Notes under the pieces: generated by a model
What the model was told of the DNA's origin: nothing
Databases searched by the model: none
What the model saw: the letters and a program-made list of their open reading frames with translations, nothing else
NCBI RefSeq assembly: GCF_014298075.1
Contig: NZ_CP060418.1
Location: 2,604,001 to 2,668,000, forward strand
Source: Enterobacter sp. JUb54
Lineage (GTDB): Bacteria > Pseudomonadota > Gammaproteobacteria > Enterobacterales > Enterobacteriaceae
DNA length: 64,000 nucleotides
Direction: 5' to 3'
Shown: one piece after another, positions 3,978 to 47,567 of the stretch
Layout: each line of letters starts with the position of its first letter
Numbering within the stretch: position 1 is the first letter of the stretch
Program-made: the position numbers and the translations under genes

Positions 3978-5441
3978 ATGATCCGACACCTGTTACACGT
4001 TGATTTCGACCCGCACCGCGGTTTGCAGGAGCAGGTGCGCGAGACGCTGATTAACGCCATTCTGGGCGGGATTTTTTCCGCCGACACCCCGCTCCCTTCC
4101 TGCCGCCAGTTGGCCAGCCAGCTGCGGGTATCACGCAATACCACCGCGCTGGTGTTTGAAAGTCTGGTGAACGAGGGCTATCTGATCAGCCGCCCGCGCA
4201 GCGGGTATTATCTGCATCCGGATTACCAGCATTCCCCTGCCGCGACCATGGATACTGCACCGCCACGCGAGAGTTCTGCACCACGATGGGGCACGCGACT
4301 GCAGATCACCCCCAGCCAGCAGGAGTCGATTCTCAAACCGGCGGGCTGGATGAACTACCGCTATCCGTTTATCTACGGGCAGCCGGACACCCGCCAGTTC
4401 CCGCTGGCTACCTGGCGTTCGGCGGCCAACTGGCTGCACGGCGGCGTGCGTGACCCGGCATGGGTGGTGGACCATATCGACCAGGATGTGCCGATGCTGA
4501 TTGAGCAGATCCGCACCCGGGTGTTGCCGAAGCGCGGGATTGTGGCGGCGCCGGATGAGATCCTGATTACCCTCGGTTCGCAAAATGCGCTGTACCTACT
4601 GACCCGCCTGCTGATGTCAGCGAAGACCCGCGTGGGCGTGGAGAATCCCTGTTTTCGTGAGGCCATCAACACCTTCCTGCTCGCCGATACCGATATTGTG
4701 CCGCACCCGGTGGATGAACAAGGTATTGTCCTTAACGACGCCCCTTGCGATTACTACTACGTCACCCCCGGCCACCAGGTGCCGACCGGCGTAGCGATGA
4801 GCAAGGCGCGACGCAGCCAGCTGCTGGAACATGCCGCCCGCCACGACGCGGTGATTATTGAGGATGATTACGACTCGGAAAGTAACTTTATGCTCAACCC
4901 GCTGCCGGCGCTGAAGGCCAGCGACCGCAGCGGCAGAGTGGTATACGTCAGCAGCCTGTCAAAAGCGCTGTCGCCGGGCCTGCGGCTGGGCTTTATGGTC
5001 GCCGACCCGGACCTGATTGACGAAGCCCGGGCATTACGCCGGCTGGTGTATCGTCATCCGCCGACCAATATTCAATATCAGATGGCCCATTTCCTCGCCC
5101 AGGGTCACTACGAAACCCATCTGCGGCGCTACCATTACGACTCCGCCCAGCGCTGGGATCGCCTGCATAATGCCCTGCAACACTACATGCCGGAGTGCCG
5201 GATTATTGCCGGCAGCGAACATGCCAACGCCTTCTGGTTGGCGACTCCGGAGCAGATCAACACCCAGCAACTGACCTGGCGCGCCGCCCACGCCGGCGTG
5301 CTGATTGAGCCCGGCGCGCGGCATTTTCTTAGCGAGGCGCCACCGGGTAACTTCTTCCGCATGGGGTTCCACGCCATTAACCCCGACGCCATCGAGCAAG
5401 GGGTCGACGTGCTGCGCGGGCAGCTGGCGCAGATGGGTTAG
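3978..5441 (+). CDS. MocR/GntR-family PLP-dependent transcriptional regulator
   Basis: A 487-residue regulator with a GntR winged helix (about residues 10-75; [17 protein letters not shown] is the recognition region) fused to a fold-type I aminotransferase domain. The PLP lysine is Lys329 in [14 protein letters not shown], and IIEDDYDSE holds the Asp that contacts the pyridine nitrogen. The frame opens at 3903, but ATG 3978 is preferred: it follows AAGGAG by 6 bases and gives the normal MocR N-terminus. MocR proteins sense PLP or amino compounds and usually control the divergent gene. Here it lies between an amino-acid importer and a peptide-type importer operon with amide hydrolases, so control of one or both is likely. 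Confidence 0.93.
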
Positions 5442-41539: not shown

Positions 41540-42625
41540 TTATTTCGCGTTCAGGTCGATACGGACAACGCTGTCCGGGCCTTTGGTCGAATGATCTTTG
41601 TTAAACGGCTGTTTGACGGTGACAAACAGCGTCTGGCCGTCGGCGGAGAGCAGCAGGCTGTTCGGGTTCGCCGGGATCGCCCAGCTGTGCTTCAGGGCAT
41701 AACTGGTGCCGTCGAGGCTGATAACCTTGCCGGATTCGCGCTGGGAGATATAAATCTCATTGCGTACGGGGTTGAACTGCACCGCCAGCGAGTCGCCCAC
41801 GTCCAGTTGCTTAATCACCTTGCCGCTATGAATGTCCAGCACCAGGGTGGTTTTGGCTTTCGAGTTGTCGGTGACGAACAGGCGGCCGGTCTTGCTGTCT
41901 TCGGCAAGGTTCAGCAACAACGCGGGCTTATCGCCGAGCGGTTTCCAGCGCTGCTCAATGCGGTTAGTGCGCGGGTTGATCACCAGAATTTCACCGCTGC
42001 CGTTGGCGGCATACAGACGTCCGGTTTGCGCAGAATAGTGCAGACCCGTCATCCATTTGCCGGTGTTTTTAATCCGCGTTTTCAGCTTCAGCGTGGTGGC
42101 ATCCACCACCCAGATTTGCGCCGGATCGGCAACGGCGCCGGCATACAGGGTGTTATCCAGCAGCAGGATCTGGCGCGCGCCGTACGGCAGGTCTTTGTCA
42201 TTGCGCTCGCTGAACAGCAGGCGTTTTTTCACTTTACCGGTAGCGGTGTCGATGGCGCTGATGCCGCCATCCAGCGAGTTCGTCACGAACAGCGTGCTGC
42301 CGTCTGGCGTTATCTGTACCGCAAAGTTTTTCAGGTCGGTGTAGCTCAGGCCGATCGTCTTCAGGGTTTTCGGGTCGAGCTTGTACACCGCCCCGCCCTG
42401 CACATCTTTAAACCCTTCCGCGCTGGCAACGTACAGGGCATCGCCCTTCGGGCTGAGCGCCATTTCGTACAGCCCCTCCGCCAGCTCGCGCTTCAGCGGC
42501 TGTGCGGCGGTGGTGGTGGTGGTTTTCTCTACCGCAGGCGGGGTGACAGGGGCGGAGCGGTTAGCAGCGCAGCCGCTTAAGACAGCAGAAATCGCCAGAG
42601 CTAATACCGGTATGGTGTATTTCAT
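41540..42625 (-). CDS. YncE-like beta-propeller lipoprotein
   Basis: About 361 residues. The lipoprotein signal has lipobox VLSGC, followed by a Pro/Thr-rich linker (about residues 20-42) and a seven-bladed YncE-type propeller with repeats such as ITPDGSTLFVTNSLDGGISAID and LSADGQTLFVTVKQ. It aligns with E. coli YncE, which is soluble rather than lipidated and iron-regulated beside the receptor gene yncD. ATG 42625 follows AAGGATCTCCACA; the frame is open eight codons further. Here it sits upstream of a TonB receptor behind a Fur-box promoter, so a role in siderophore or cofactor uptake at the outer membrane is likely but unproven. Confidence 0.88.
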   Translation of the reverse strand: MKYTIPVLALAISAVLSGCAANRSAPVTPPAVEKTTTTTAAQPLKRELAEGLYEMALSPKGDALYVASAEGFKDVQGGAVYKLDPKTLKTIGLSYTDLKNFAVQITPDGSTLFVTNSLDGGISAIDTATGKVKKRLLFSERNDKDLPYGARQILLLDNTLYAGAVADPAQIWVVDATTLKLKTRIKNTGKWMTGLHYSAQTGRLYAANGSGEILVINPRTNRIEQRWKPLGDKPALLLNLAEDSKTGRLFVTDNSKAKTTLVLDIHSGKVIKQLDVGDSLAVQFNPVRNEIYISQRESGKVISLDGTSYALKHSWAIPANPNSLLLSADGQTLFVTVKQPFNKDHSTKGPDSVVRIDLNAK

Positions 42626-42667
42626 TGTGGAGATCCTTAACAAAATCAATGAGCCAGTGGTAGCTCC

Positions 42668-42769
42668 GCGCCGATATTATGATTTTCCGGCCTGACGAGA
42701 GTGAGCTCCACCCTGTGCCTTCGCTGTTTCCCTGTGAGCAAGTCACTGGCGCAGGTCAGTCCATGCCTA
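42668..42769 (-). promoter_or_regulatory. Foldable 5' leader, candidate cis-regulatory RNA
   Basis: Between the predicted start site (about 42788) and the YncE-like ATG lie about 160 nt with nested complementarity on the transcript. CCTGCGCC pairs with GGCACAGG, GTGA with TCAC inside it, and an outer GGaCTGAC pairs with GTCAGgCC to close a multi-branch loop. I find no consensus for TPP, cobalamin or Moco riboswitches. The pairing is my hand reading; no folding was run. Confidence 0.4.
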
Positions 42770-42791
42770 GCCTGCAAACAAAAAGAAGAAT

Positions 42792-42823
42792 GAGAACTAT
42801 ACGCATTATCGACTCTCAGGCAA
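42792..42823 (-). promoter_or_regulatory. Promoter with overlapping Fur box (YncE-like/TonB receptor operon)
   Basis: On the minus strand TTGCCT (42818-42823) and TATAGT (42796-42801) are 16 bases apart, a good sigma-70 promoter with TGCG before the -10. GAGAACTATACGCATTATC (42792-42810) matches the 19-bp Fur consensus at 14 positions and covers the -10, so iron-dependent repression is expected. Confidence 0.75.
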
Positions 42824-43279
42824 GTGCAATCACCCTGATTAAGAGGTAAAAACGATAATATTTTTAATTTACATCATGATATGTCGATAGTTTTGTCGCC
42901 AGATTACCGCGGGGTCGACTGCCGGTTTAGCGCTATTCAGAGGCGCAGCCCAACGCCTGTGATATAAGGAATCTGGCAAAGCGAAGTAGATATGCTTCCC
43001 GCATAAACTCAAATAAAATAAACAATCCCAAGAAAAGTTAAGAAGACCAAAGATAAAATAAACTCACCTGCATTGTACCGCTCATCACCTTACTCCGGGC
43101 AGAGTCGACACCAGGTTAATACAATTAAAGTTAATTTCAGTTTATTTCTCTGGCACAGCTGTTAACGTTCAACGCCAATATAAGACTGCTGTAGTTGTAG
43201 TAATGCGCGGATAACAGAGCGGCAGTTTCTGCCCCGCAGCAGGTGGTGAAGAACCACCAACGGACAAGGGAGTTGTGCT
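42824..43279. other. AT-rich intergenic region before the first adhesin gene
   Basis: About 450 bp without a convincing gene. It must hold the promoter of the adhesin gene. A 5'-leader hairpin GGTGGT-GAAGA-ACCACC (43242-43258) lies just upstream of the ribosome site GGGAG. The lower GC than the flanks continues through both adhesin genes. Confidence 0.4.
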
Positions 43280-44393
43280 GTGATAAATACTGGAATCAAA
43301 ATTTTGCTGGGACTGACGGCCTGCCTGGCAGGGGGAAATGTCTATGCTTCGTGCGAAATGGTGCAGCGTTCAGACCTTTCCGTACCAGCTTCACCGATAA
43401 TCGGTACTGTAGCGTTGAATGCCACAGTATCTGCACCAGCCGATATGCCGCTAGGTACCATACTTTATCGAGGGGTATTCAACCGTCCGATTCAGGTAGC
43501 CATAAAATGTACTGAGCAGGGCCAGTTTTATACCTTACAGAAAATGGCAACATCGGCTGGCACTCTGGGCAAAGCCGAAGACTTTAACCCCCCCGTCCCT
43601 GTCGGCTCGGTAGTTTTTAAGACATCCATGCCCGGCGTGGGGTTTGCTTTAAATAGCGGTTACACCGTTTATGATGTTCCGCACGCAGCAGCAGTATGTG
43701 TTAACTCTAGTAATTGTATCTGGAACGGTGACAGCATAGTAAATGCCGCATCAATTATGTATTTAATCAAAACCGGGCCGATTACCCCGGGAACTATCAT
43801 CGGAGCCTCACTTCCCGTTTATTCGGAACTGTTCGGTCAGGATGGTTTCATGGTCACGACAATGGCAATGCCATTTACCGGCAGTATTACCGTGCCCCCC
43901 CCCAGCTGCACCACGCCGGATGTCGCCGTAGAGATGGGTACCTGGAGCGTGGGAGATTTTCGCGGAAAGGGCTCGGGTACTGAGTGGCAAGATACCAGCA
44001 TCCGGATGACGGGGTGCGACAATTTTTACGGTTATCGCGCAGGCCATAATCTGGATAATGGCGGAACCGCTAGTCTGAGCGAACCGGTCTACAAAAATAA
44101 ATATACCGTTAGTCTCTCCCCCCCAGTCCGCGGCCATCGACAGCAACAGCGGCATTATGTCCGTCGCGGAGGGCGATAATTCAGCCAGCGGCGTGGGCAT
44201 TCAAATAGGAATGGGGTCAGTGGCTAGCGCGGAATCCCGGCTGGTAACATTTGGTAATCCTTACCAGCAAGATATATCCAGCGCGGGTAGCACCATGACG
44301 TTTCCGCTGGCAGCCCGCTATATTCAAACGAATGAACGCCTCAGGCCAGGAAAGGCTGACGGAAAAGTCACTTTTACCATTGCATATAAATAG
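43280..44393 (+). pseudogene. Fimbrial tip adhesin-like gene, frameshifted in a poly-C tract
   Basis: GTG 43280 (GGGAG upstream) opens a 299-residue frame with signal peptide and two-domain adhesin layout: an N-terminal domain with DMPLGTILYRG and MPGVGFAL, then a pilin domain starting CTTPDVAVEMGTWSVGDF. At a run of seven C (44118-44124) the frame leaves the pilin fold and stops at 44179. With six C it continues into the frame 44157-44393 (SAAIDSNSG...ASGVGIQIGMG...GKADGKVTFTIAYK), giving a 370-residue protein matching the 373-residue downstream paralogue. Other C runs are at 43588-43594 (7) and 43895-43903 (9). It is either off-phase, decayed or a sequencing error. No chaperone or usher is nearby. 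Confidence 0.85.
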
Positions 44394-44779
44394 CTGAGCG
44401 TTTAATTACCGCCAAAGATCAGCTTTTGATTGTTTGCTTTACTACTTTTGATACAAACCACCTGACGGGAGCTGCTGCTGAGACATCTGCCATAATTTAT
44501 CGCATGCTTCGCCCCCTGCCAGCGCCAGTCTGAAGTAAAAAAACATTCAAAAAAATACGATTAATAACAAAAACCAACCGCCCTCCAATAGTGGATTCAC
44601 TATTAACCAAAGATTTATTAAGAATAAAAAACAAAACTTCAATTTCATTTTCTCTCTCTAGCCACTAACATACGCAAAATAATATTCATTAAGCTATAAA
44701 ATTGCCCAAAACATCATGACGCAACACCTGAAGATAACGCAATCAAATACAAAAAATTCAGCCTGGAGATAAAGTTTTT
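44394..44779. other. AT-rich gap between the two adhesin genes
   Basis: This 386-bp stretch has no ORF of note. It is rich in A-tracts (AAAAAACATTCAAAAAAATAC type) and must carry the promoter for the second adhesin. I see no strong dyad. Its low GC suggests horizontally acquired DNA or H-NS silencing. Confidence 0.4.
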
Positions 44780-45901
44780 ATGCGTTTTAATTTTCACATT
44801 AAATATTTATTGTCATTGTCTATGCTGTGCTCGCCATGGGCTAACGCAATAGTGCAATGTCAGCAGGATATTCCTGAAAAAAAAGAAACGTTAAGCATCA
44901 TTGCAAATAATATAACCATCGGACCCGACATGCCATTAGGCACCGTGTTATATGGCGGTACCATTTCCGCTCCGATTGAATTACATCTGAAATGTAGTTC
45001 ACCGACCCCTGAGAGCGGCAGTGTTAAATGGATGTTAGGTTTAGAGTCAGTCAATTTCCCTTTATCTTCCTGGTCCGGGTCGCCATTCGGCGGCCAAATA
45101 TATGAAACCAATATTCCCGGCGTTGGTATTGCCGTGTGGTATGCCGGAAAAGCCGTGACAAAAGAATCCCCCGTGATGGCGTTTGAGAATCTAATTACCA
45201 CCACCGAAAATCAAGCATTTTATTTTGGCATGTCCAGCATCTTTGATATTTCATTAATGAAAATAGGTAATACTCCTCCCGGAAATTACACCATTGATTC
45301 TTCCTCGTTCCCGAGCATGGTGAAATACTATGAAGCAGGGTCGAATATGGCTGGAAACTTCCCGATCATCGCCAGACGTTATCAGTTATCGGGCTCAATC
45401 AATGTCTCAGCCAGAACCTGCACGACGCCGGATGTCAAAGTTCCTCTGGGGACACATAGCGCGTCAGTGTTCTCCGCCGCCGATGGCACACCGTGGGTGG
45501 ACGCATCGATTAGACTGACCGATTGCCCTGTTTTTTCGGGCTATCACTCGGCTTATAGTCGGGTCAATTTAGCCACGGGTGATATTCCCCCCACAACCAA
45601 TAACCAGATCAGCATCAGCCTTGCGCCTGTGAACGGTATTTTTGATGCAGAAAATGGCGTGATTAATATTACGCCATCCGATGAATCGGCCAGAGGTGTT
45701 GGTATACAGATTGCTCATGGTACGCCCGGTACACCATCCCCTGAACCTTTTGCTTTTAACCGCCCGTCTGTCGTTAATTTGCCTAAAACGGGCGACAGTA
45801 CAATAACCTACCCACTTGTTGCGCGTTATGTTAAGACATCATCGGCATTTAGTTCAGGGAAGGCGGATGGGCGCGTCACGTTTACGGTTAACTATTACTG
45901 A
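44780..45901 (+). CDS. Fimbrial adhesin-like protein (two-domain tip adhesin)
   Basis: A 373-residue exported protein with a signal peptide (YLLSLSMLCSPWANA), an N-terminal receptor-binding-like domain (about 25-215) and a C-terminal pilin domain beginning CTTPDVKVPLGTHSASVFS and ending GKADGRVTFTVNYY, the donor-strand-accepting pattern of chaperone-usher subunits. Two Cys pairs are plausible (C27/C73; C217/C251 region). It resembles FimH/MrkD-type tip proteins in layout only. It is a paralogue of the preceding gene and, unlike it, is intact. No chaperone, usher or major pilin is in the window, so it must use another system or is an orphan. GGAGATAAAGTTTTT precedes the ATG. Confidence 0.85.
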   Translation: MRFNFHIKYLLSLSMLCSPWANAIVQCQQDIPEKKETLSIIANNITIGPDMPLGTVLYGGTISAPIELHLKCSSPTPESGSVKWMLGLESVNFPLSSWSGSPFGGQIYETNIPGVGIAVWYAGKAVTKESPVMAFENLITTTENQAFYFGMSSIFDISLMKIGNTPPGNYTIDSSSFPSMVKYYEAGSNMAGNFPIIARRYQLSGSINVSARTCTTPDVKVPLGTHSASVFSAADGTPWVDASIRLTDCPVFSGYHSAYSRVNLATGDIPPTTNNQISISLAPVNGIFDAENGVINITPSDESARGVGIQIAHGTPGTPSPEPFAFNRPSVVNLPKTGDSTITYPLVARYVKTSSAFSSGKADGRVTFTVNYY

Positions 45902-45927
45902 CACTCCGGTAACAGGTCAGCCGCACA

Positions 45928-47412
45928 TTAGTAGCGCACCATCACCGATTTCAGTTCGGTGTAATCATCGATAAACGCGCTACCGAATTCACGCCCTGTG
46001 CCCGACCCTTTCATGCCGCCGAACGGCACCGCCGGGTCGAGAAAGGTGTGCATGTTCACCCAGACGATCCCGGCGTTAATCGCCTCAGAGTAGCGCAGCG
46101 CCTTGCGGATATTATCCGACCAGACGCTGGCGGCGAGGCCAAACGGCGAGGCGTTGATGCGGGACAGCGCATCCGCTTCGCTCTGGTAACCGATAAAACT
46201 ACACACCGGGCCGAACGTCTCTTCCTGCATCAGGGTGCTGTTTTCGCTACGCACCTTCACCGCCGTCGGCAGGACAAAATAGCCCTCGCCGGGCAGCGCT
46301 TCGCCGCCGCAGACGATGGTGTCGCCCTCTTGCCGCGCCGTCTCAATCAGCTGCAGGACTTTCTCAAACTGCTGCCGGTTGGCCAGCGGCCCCATTGGCG
46401 TTTGCTCGTCCAGCGGCGAGCCGGGACGCAGCGCTGAAAGTCGCTGTTTCAGTAGCTCAAGAACCGCATCCAGCTTGCCTTCCGGCAGATAAAACCGCTC
46501 GGCGGCGGCGCAGATTTGCCCCTGGTTGAGATAGCCCGCTTCGATAATGCCGTCGGCCATCGCTTCGGGGGTGAGATCGTCGAGGAACAAGGCGGCATTT
46601 TTACCCCCCAGCTCCAGAGTGACGCGTTTCCCGGCCCCGGTCGCCGACTGCTGGACCTTCCCGCCGGTGACCACCGAACCGGTAAAACTGACCTTCGCAC
46701 AGGCCGGGTGGGTAATCAGCCGCTGGGCGATATCCCCCCCGGCGCCGTTAACCACGTTGATCACGCCATCGGGGATCCCTGCCGCTTTGGCCAGCTCCGC
46801 CACCCGCAGCAGGGTCAGCGGCGTATATTCGCTCGGCTTCAGCACGATGGTGCAGCCGCACACCAGCGCCGCCGCCAGCTTCCAGATAGCGATCATGATC
46901 GAAAAATTCCACGGCACGATCCCCACCACCACGCCCAGCGGCTGGCGACGGGTAAACGCCGTGTACTTCTCGCCGGCCATCGACGGAAGCGACACATCCA
47001 GGGTTTCCCCGGTGACTTTCCCGGCCCAGCCGGCAAAGTAGCGCAGGAACGCCACCGATTGATCCAGCTCGAGCATCCGCGCCAGGGAGATGGTTTTCCC
47101 GGAGCACAGGCTCTCCAGTTGCGCCAGCTCCTCACGATGCGCTGCCAGCTGGTCCGCCAGTTTCAGCAGCAGCGTGCCGCGCTGTAGCGCCGGCATCTCA
47201 CGCCAGACGGCAAACGCCTGGCTGGCGCTCGCCATCGCCTGGGCCGCCTGATCCGCATTCGCGGATGTCACGTTCGCTATCGCTTTACCGGTGGCGGGAT
47301 TGACGACCGTCAGCGTCGGTCCGTTGCCCGGCAAGGCTTCCCCGGCAATAAACTGGCCGTGGGGTTGGCGTAAAAACGCGGTTACTTCAGCAAGCAAGGT
47401 TACGTCGCTCAT
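45928..47412 (-). CDS. NAD(P)-dependent aldehyde dehydrogenase (PuuC/phenylacetaldehyde dehydrogenase-like)
   Basis: About 494 residues, the normal family length. Catalytic Glu is in TLELGGKNAALF and Cys in NQGQICAAAERFY; the nucleotide motif FTGSVVTGGKVQQ and NFSIMIAIWK are present. It oxidises an aldehyde to the acid in the cytosol. The frame is open to 47493; MSDVTLL at 47412 is chosen because family proteins begin about there. It is divergent from an FAD amine-oxidase-like gene followed by a cupin and a permease, a set like the Puu putrescine pathway, so the substrate is probably an aminoaldehyde or similar. Confidence 0.9.
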   Translation of the reverse strand: MSDVTLLAEVTAFLRQPHGQFIAGEALPGNGPTLTVVNPATGKAIANVTSANADQAAQAMASASQAFAVWREMPALQRGTLLLKLADQLAAHREELAQLESLCSGKTISLARMLELDQSVAFLRYFAGWAGKVTGETLDVSLPSMAGEKYTAFTRRQPLGVVVGIVPWNFSIMIAIWKLAAALVCGCTIVLKPSEYTPLTLLRVAELAKAAGIPDGVINVVNGAGGDIAQRLITHPACAKVSFTGSVVTGGKVQQSATGAGKRVTLELGGKNAALFLDDLTPEAMADGIIEAGYLNQGQICAAAERFYLPEGKLDAVLELLKQRLSALRPGSPLDEQTPMGPLANRQQFEKVLQLIETARQEGDTIVCGGEALPGEGYFVLPTAVKVRSENSTLMQEETFGPVCSFIGYQSEADALSRINASPFGLAASVWSDNIRKALRYSEAINAGIVWVNMHTFLDPAVPFGGMKGSGTGREFGSAFIDDYTELKSVMVRY

Positions 47413-47567
47413 CGGTGGCATCCGTGGTTTCAGAAAATGTTCCCCATCCCACCACATCCGGTTCGCGCAGCCTATCGTTCTAAAGTACGTCATTCTTTCG
47501 GACGATATTCAGCCCCCCGCCGCCATGCTGTGATGGGTGCCTTAGCCAGGCGAGACAGGGTAACGCT

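What the first reader, a model, noticed from the sequence alone, without database searches (positions are those of the whole stretch)
43280..44393. Adhesin gene frameshifted in a poly-C run: possible phase-variable switch
The frame breaks exactly at a run of seven C (44118-44124). Removing one C restores a 370-residue adhesin whose C-terminal pilin domain matches the intact paralogue at 44780-45901. The same gene has further C runs of 7 and 9. Homopolymer runs in surface genes are classic slipped-strand switches, and phase-off is a simple reading of the break. The intact signal sequence and absence of other lesions argue against old decay.
Basis: partly seen in the sequence, partly recalled or inferred. 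Interest (0 to 1): 0.72.

Follow-up and report, generated by a model that had tools for sequence, protein, structure and literature searches.

The report
Klebsiella fimbrial adhesin gene, currently broken
A gene for a sticky tip protein of bacterial surface fibres is out of frame at a run of seven Cs; it is most likely a recent slip that switched off a spare copy, and whether it can flip back on often enough to matter is not shown.

Summary
The gene at 43280-44393 has C runs of 7, 9 and 7; its frame changes within about 16 bases holding the last run. Both halves are otherwise open and together cover one pilin domain. It encodes a two-domain chaperone-usher tip adhesin without usher or chaperone beside it, next to an intact sister, in a ~3 kb segment; 19 of 19 held Klebsiella congeners lack the gene. 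A 46-49% identical copy is intact in a fimbrial operon elsewhere. The part behind the break is still conserved, so the break looks recent. The C9 is the genome's only C/G run of 9; fimbrial genes hold 6 of 82 C/G runs of 7 or more. Against a fast switch: a 7-base run switched very rarely in a published assay; it sits at 75% of the gene; C/G runs are not in excess here; no second allele was found. I favour a recent, slow-to-revert null allele. Phase switch and assembly error remain open; 24 scorable C/G runs elsewhere are in frame, which lowers but does not remove the error reading.

The parts
43280..44179 (+). first open piece of the adhesin gene (GTG start, 299 aa: signal-peptide-like start, receptor-binding domain, first half of the pilin domain, then about 20 out-of-frame residues)
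43588..43594 (+). C7 run, in frame (Asn-Pro-Pro)
43895..43903 (+). C9 run, in frame (three CCC proline codons); the only C/G run of 9 in the 5.3 Mb genome
44118..44124 (+). C7 run at which the frame changes
44125..44393 (+). second open piece, in another frame: second half of the pilin domain with the usual C-terminal end and its own stop
44780..45901 (+). intact sister gene, 373 aa two-domain tip adhesin
42834..45922 (.). segment of about 3.0-3.1 kb that carries both adhesin genes and nothing else recognised (left edge between 42810 and 42933 by congener); G+C 36-55% against 57-65% in the flanks
41540..42649 (-). left flank: YncE-like beta-propeller gene
45928..47493 (-). right flank: aldehyde dehydrogenase gene

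Best explanation
An orphan chaperone-usher tip adhesin gene, present with a sister gene in a segment that congeners lack, has recently lost its frame by a length change in a C7 run, the usual slipped-strand error of replication. Shown: the break is at the run, both pieces are otherwise open and conserved, and an intact sister and an intact operon copy exist. Inferred: the 299-residue product lacks the second half of its pilin domain, so it cannot take the donor strand or be handed to the usher, and is degraded in the periplasm. The loss is tolerated because other tip adhesins serve the same or other fimbriae. The change could revert by the reverse slip, but at a run of 7 with mismatch repair working this would be rare. 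It is therefore a slow, incidental on/off allele rather than an evolved fast switch.
For: The frame changes at the run only. Piece 2 is 55% identical to the operon copy over 86 columns, between the 46-49% of piece 1 as a whole and the 63% of its 70-codon pilin half; differences concentrate at third codon positions in both pieces (0.60 and 0.63 against 0.25-0.36 at positions 1 and 2), so the part behind the break was under selection until lately. The AlphaFold2 model of the product as it stands is fair to good over the receptor-binding domain (block means 70-94 up to residue 210, except 56 and 64 at 141-160) and poor over the end of what is left of the pilin domain (45-57 for residues 251-299). 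Orphan setting in a segment absent from congeners. Intact operon copy with pilin, chaperone and usher genes. Published switching frequencies at 7 bases are very low (PMC4085013 section 17).
Against: Three long C runs in one gene, one the longest C/G run in the genome, and a second tip adhesin with two G7 runs, look like more than accident. No raw reads were available, so the change may be an assembly error. No strain comparison was possible, so fixation is not shown.
Confidence: 0.5

Rival explanations
1. Phase-variable contingency locus: slippage in the C runs, above all C9, turns the adhesin on and off at a useful rate, and this assembly caught an off cell line.
For: Runs of 7, 9 and 7 in one gene. 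The only C/G run of 9 in the genome. Given the protein, two or more C runs of 7 upstream of the break have P 0.0013-0.0015. 31 counted fimbrial-domain genes, 0.43% of the genome, hold 6 of 82 C/G runs of 7 or more, 0.35 expected (P 2e-6; without this gene 3 runs in 2 genes, P 0.005 by runs and 0.045 by genes). 0 of 29 relatives read (of 43 other genomes with a match) have C7 or longer, the operon copy has no C run of 5 or more and the sister's longest is C6, so the runs arose in this gene's own lineage. Bordetella surface genes with one or two coding C/G tracts (tcfA, bapC) and the short C7/C8 tract before fimX are precedents (PMC1891110).
Against: The break is at C7, not at the longer C9. A 7-base tract switched at 6.5e-10 in a meningococcal assay. 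The tract is at 75% of the gene. C/G runs are under-represented in this genome: observed 82, 14 and 1 at lengths of at least 7, 8 and 9, against 164-237, 30-50 and 5.5-10 expected. Enrichment tests are post hoc. No second allele was seen.
Confidence: 0.2
2. Sequencing or assembly error in a C homopolymer; the gene is intact in the cell.
For: Homopolymer length is a common error of long-read assemblies (recalled). The gene is otherwise intact and conserved, as an error would leave it.
Against: All 82 C/G runs of 7 or more were examined. 27 had same-strand coding signal on both sides at threshold 3; 25 keep the frame (this gene's C9 and 24 elsewhere, three of those of length 8) and two change it: this one and a run at the junction of two complete genes. 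The other 55 were not informative: 3 show a strand change, 52 have too little signal. Among 51 coding-like segments of the window no other broken gene stands out, but that scan is blind to genes of atypical codon use: it does not list the two adhesin genes themselves.
Confidence: 0.24
3. Leaky gene: ribosomes or RNA polymerase slip on the proline-codon C run often enough to make some full-length adhesin, so the gene works at low level as it stands.
For: The run is read as proline codons, a known slippery context in enterobacteria (recalled, no call). The frame behind the break is conserved.
Against: No stimulatory element was looked for. The other relatives listed have single open frames of 359-471 codons. 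A recent break leaves the same conservation.
Confidence: 0.05

Closest known systems
Two-domain tip adhesins of chaperone-usher fimbriae (FimH, MrkD, Abp2D, UcaD/UclD)
   Same: Signal-peptide-like start, N-terminal receptor-binding domain (best Foldseek match Abp2D, E 2.3e-6, TM by target 0.61; weaker ones UclD/UcaD, CupB6, FimH, E 1.4e-4 to 1e-3, TM by target 0.23-0.45) and C-terminal PF00419 pilin domain
   Different: Frame broken in the pilin domain; no usher, chaperone or pilin gene beside it; weak match only to the MrkD receptor-binding model (E 0.16, sister 5.5e-4, both under cut-off)
Slipped-strand contingency loci with coding C/G tracts (Bordetella bapC and tcfA; Neisseria tracts)
   Same: Surface gene with long coding C tracts, one of them out of frame
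   Different: Tracts are short (7, 9, 7), genome-wide C/G tracts are not in excess, no length variation demonstrated, host is an enterobacterium
Decaying surface genes with homopolymer tracts (Campylobacter capC/capD, PMC7168839)
   Same: Inactive surface-protein gene of patchy distribution associated with G tracts; there the authors favour lineage-specific decay over tract-driven switching for capC (passages)
   Different: Here only one lesion is seen and it lies in the tract itself

Membership tests
chaperone-usher two-domain tip adhesin | N-terminal signal peptide and receptor-binding domain | tested here: met
   Helix 2-17 then a beta domain in the model; Foldseek matches to Abp2D, UclD, UcaD and FimH receptor domains. 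No signal-peptide predictor was run.
chaperone-usher two-domain tip adhesin | C-terminal pilin domain PF00419 | tested here: met
   Present in the DNA in two frames: model 3-69 (sub-threshold) and 67-151 (over cut-off)
chaperone-usher two-domain tip adhesin | one uninterrupted reading frame | tested here: not met
   Frame changes at 44118-44124
chaperone-usher two-domain tip adhesin | usher and chaperone genes in the same operon | tested here: not met
   Neighbours are the sister adhesin, a YncE-like gene and an aldehyde dehydrogenase; a full operon with a 46-49% identical adhesin lies at about 2.27 Mb
slipped-strand contingency locus | simple repeat tract whose length sets the frame | tested here: met
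   Three C tracts; frame changes at one
slipped-strand contingency locus | tract of a length known to slip at useful rate | tested here: inconclusive
   7 is low by published rates, which also cover 8 and 10 but not 9 in the off state; a Bordetella screen called C/G tracts over 8, with shorter known cases
slipped-strand contingency locus | tract length differs among strains or within a clone | not testable with these tools
   One genome per species; no close relative found; protein database unavailable; no reads
pseudogene | disabling lesion | tested here: met
pseudogene | further lesions or relaxed constraint | tested here: not met
   No other stop or frame change; third-position excess on both sides of the break

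The most novel reading that the evidence does not exclude
This Klebsiella lineage keeps a set of interchangeable tip adhesins, some orphan and served by the usher of a distant operon, and uses C/G homopolymer slippage inside the adhesin genes (runs of 7, 9 and 7 here, two G7 runs early in the tip adhesin at 5.258 Mb) to vary which tip is made. This would be a contingency system in a group that is known for inversion and methylation switches of fimbriae (recalled).
Probability: 0.13. Interest if true: 0.62.

Novelty: new member of a known kind. Interest (0 to 1): 0.3.

Why it matters
If the tracts vary within clones, tip-adhesin choice in some Klebsiella would be under slippage control, and single genome assemblies would wrongly list such genes as pseudogenes. 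If not, it is one more recent null allele among redundant fimbrial genes. Counting run lengths in reads of the isolate would decide.

Tried and rejected
Old decay: rejected, since both pieces are open and conserved. Clustering of C runs as proof of selection: weakened, since two non-coding clusters exist and C/G runs are below expectation genome-wide. A second frame change at 2513361: rejected, two complete genes abut there. Comparison of run length across strains or species: not possible. Both genome-contig scans found no relative, 19 of 19 congeners lack the gene at DNA level, and relatives elsewhere are at most 38% (genomes) or 39.3% (plasmids) identical. Structure of a full-length product: not attempted. 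One search read 12 of 29 relatives on the wrong strand; one search replaces it. The PF00419 list (29 matches) missed at least the intact sister and the gene at about 4.9216 Mb, so 31 genes is a lower count; of the frames assigned to runs not every weak one was put to Pfam, so 6 runs in fimbrial genes is likewise a lower count. The Markov expectation was trained with the finding gene included; one search leaves it out. Paper searches (all but 74 and 75 show only part of their hits) listed no paper whose title or shown abstract start describes slippage control of a Klebsiella chaperone-usher adhesin. The one paper holding all three terms has slipped-strand and fimbrial adhesin only in its reference list. 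Absence is limited to this library and these terms.

Full report
Setting. The window is base 2604001-2668000 of a single-contig 5.3 Mb genome. Its genus holds 20 genomes here, this one included. One of them, G001, is 99.98% identical over 5.1 kb to Klebsiella aerogenes NCTC10006, and another, G012, 99.3% over 1.1 kb to a K. pneumoniae record, so the genus is Klebsiella in the GTDB sense. The species itself is unnamed; at the right flank its nearest held congeners are 87-88% identical.

The observation. The gene starts at a GTG at 43280 and is open to 44179 (299 aa). A different frame is open to a stop at 44391-44393. C runs lie at 43588-43594 (7), 43895-43903 (9) and 44118-44124 (7). The first frame covers Pfam Fimbrial model 3-69 (below cut-off) and the second model 67-151 (over cut-off). 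Aligned apart to the operon copy, piece 1 ends at its residue 279 and piece 2 resumes at operon residue 300, which puts the break between 44117 and about 44133.

What the gene is. Piece 1 has a signal-peptide-like start and a receptor-binding domain; the AlphaFold2 model of the product as it stands (mean pLDDT 75) matches the Abp2D receptor domain (Foldseek E 2.3e-6, TM by target 0.61) and more weakly UclD/UcaD, CupB6 and FimH. The end of what remains of the pilin domain is modelled poorly (block means 45-57 for residues 251-299). The intact sister at 44780-45901 matches PF00419 over 203-372, and by sequence, weakly, the Abp2D receptor domain (E 4e-4) and FimG (E 0.01). A third copy at 2.267 Mb is 46-49% identical to piece 1 and lies in a full fimbrial operon: adhesin, pilin, chaperone, usher, with a regulator pair upstream on the other strand (gene roles read from sequence; adhesin and pilin confirmed by Pfam). 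The broken gene and its sister have no such genes beside them. They sit in a segment of about 3 kb and lower G+C between a YncE-like gene and an aldehyde dehydrogenase gene. Of 19 congeners, the two flanks are about 200 bp apart in four (G008, G011, G012, G019), about 1.8 kb apart in two (G001, G002; the K. aerogenes record that matches G001 has an ndh gene there), and about 1.7 kb apart in two more where only a short piece of the right flank matches (G014, G018); in the other 11 one flank, short pieces or neither matched. The gene is absent at DNA level from 19 of 19 congeners; G002 and G010 have distant protein matches (E 1.5e-12 and 4e-16). That both orphan tips use the distant operon's usher is inference.

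Is the break old? It does not look so. Piece 2 is 55% identical to the operon copy; piece 1 is 46-49% overall and 63% in its pilin half. Differences at codon positions 1, 2 and 3 are 0.34, 0.25 and 0.60 in piece 2 and 0.36, 0.34 and 0.63 in piece 1. The other relatives listed have open frames of 359-471 codons; of 29 read in detail (from 43 other genomes with a match) none has a C run of 7 or more, one has a G7 and six more have a C or G run of 6. The operon copy has no C run of 5 or more and the sister's longest is 6.

Is it an assembly error? The genome has 82 C/G runs of 7 or more: 68 of 7, 13 of 8 and one of 9. Each was tested for codon-score frame on both sides. At threshold 3, 27 have same-strand coding signal on both sides and 25 keep the frame. 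One of those 25 is this gene's own C9, so 24 lie elsewhere. Two change frame: the finding, and one at the junction of two complete genes. Three more show a strand change and 52 have too little signal. At threshold 4 the counts are 24, the same two, and two strand changes; at 6 the finding itself is no longer scorable. No other broken gene stands out among 51 coding-like segments of the window, but that scan does not list the two adhesin genes, so it is blind to genes of atypical codon use. An error is therefore less likely but not excluded.

Are the runs more than chance? For: the single run of 9 is in this gene. Given protein and codon usage, two or more C runs of 7 upstream of the break have P 0.0013-0.0015 and a run of 9 P 0.018-0.037. 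Of 82 runs, 6 lie in three of 31 counted fimbrial-domain genes (0.35 expected by length, P 2e-6; leaving out the finding gene, P 0.005 by runs and 0.045 by genes). One of these is another tip adhesin, at 5.258 Mb, with two G7 runs at codons 37 and 107, frame open. Against: these tests are post hoc; two non-coding clusters of three or four runs exist; other runs sit, in frame, in ordinary metabolic and transport genes; and C/G runs are below Markov expectation genome-wide (82, 14 and 1 against 164-237, 30-50 and 5.5-10 for lengths of at least 7, 8 and 9).

Would it switch? In a meningococcal assay, poly-G of 7, 8 and 10 switched from off to on at median 6.5e-10, 2.4e-8 and 1.2e-7 (PMC4085013, section 17 and passages). 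A Bordetella screen called C/G tracts over 8, but C6 in bvgS is known to vary and a C7/C8 difference before fimX went with expression (PMC1891110, section 6 part 1 of 2 and passages). [quoted passage not shown] In Escherichia intragenic tracts are mostly of 6 (PMC8928963, passages). The broken run here is of 7 and lies at 75% of the gene. A fast, selected switch at this run is thus unlikely; the C9 would be the better switch but is in frame.

Verdict. A recent slippage-born null allele of a spare tip adhesin is the best reading (0.5), with assembly error (0.24), contingency locus (0.2) and leaky translation (0.05) as rivals. Allele comparison, which would decide, was not possible: one genome per species is held, both genome scans found no relative, the protein database was unavailable and no reads are held.

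Noticed in passing
L150:1391-2386 (G000:C1:5258251-5259246): Another chaperone-usher tip adhesin (331 aa, PF00419, directly downstream of a frame that reads like an usher) has two G7 runs early in the gene, at codons 37 and 107; frame open; no DNA match in 19 of 19 congeners.
   Followed up: partly
L144:1277-1876 (G000:C1 about 4.9216 Mb): A PF00419 fimbrial subunit gene with a G7 run inside an open frame.
   Followed up: no
L073:7073-14493 (G000:C1 about 2.265-2.2725 Mb): Full fimbrial operon with adhesin first, and a divergent pair that reads like a winged-helix regulator and a small exported protein; a K. aerogenes plasmid (pC9_001) carries a similar annotated module with two further fimbrial proteins.
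   Followed up: partly
L128 about 4469-4707 (G000:C1:3291198-3291436): Three C8 runs spaced about 115 bp apart in a non-coding stretch between genes that read like rsmC and a GGDEF protein, perhaps a repeat element.
   Followed up: no
L114 and L115 (G000:C1 about 2.026 and 2.031 Mb): Two apparently non-coding stretches with clustered C/G runs of 7 (2 and 4) whose chance translations share long identical stretches, so probably copies of one repeat.
   Followed up: no
window 42650-45927 and congeners: The site between the YncE-like and aldehyde dehydrogenase genes varies in the genus: about 200 bp in four species, about 1.7-1.8 kb in four (an ndh gene in the K. aerogenes record), the adhesin pair here.
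   Followed up: partly
L152 (LR134125.1): A 770 kb record labelled plasmid of K. aerogenes carries ordinary chromosomal genes (pheP, ybdG-like, nfnB) and is probably a chromosome piece; its yncE is annotated as two overlapping genes.
   Followed up: no
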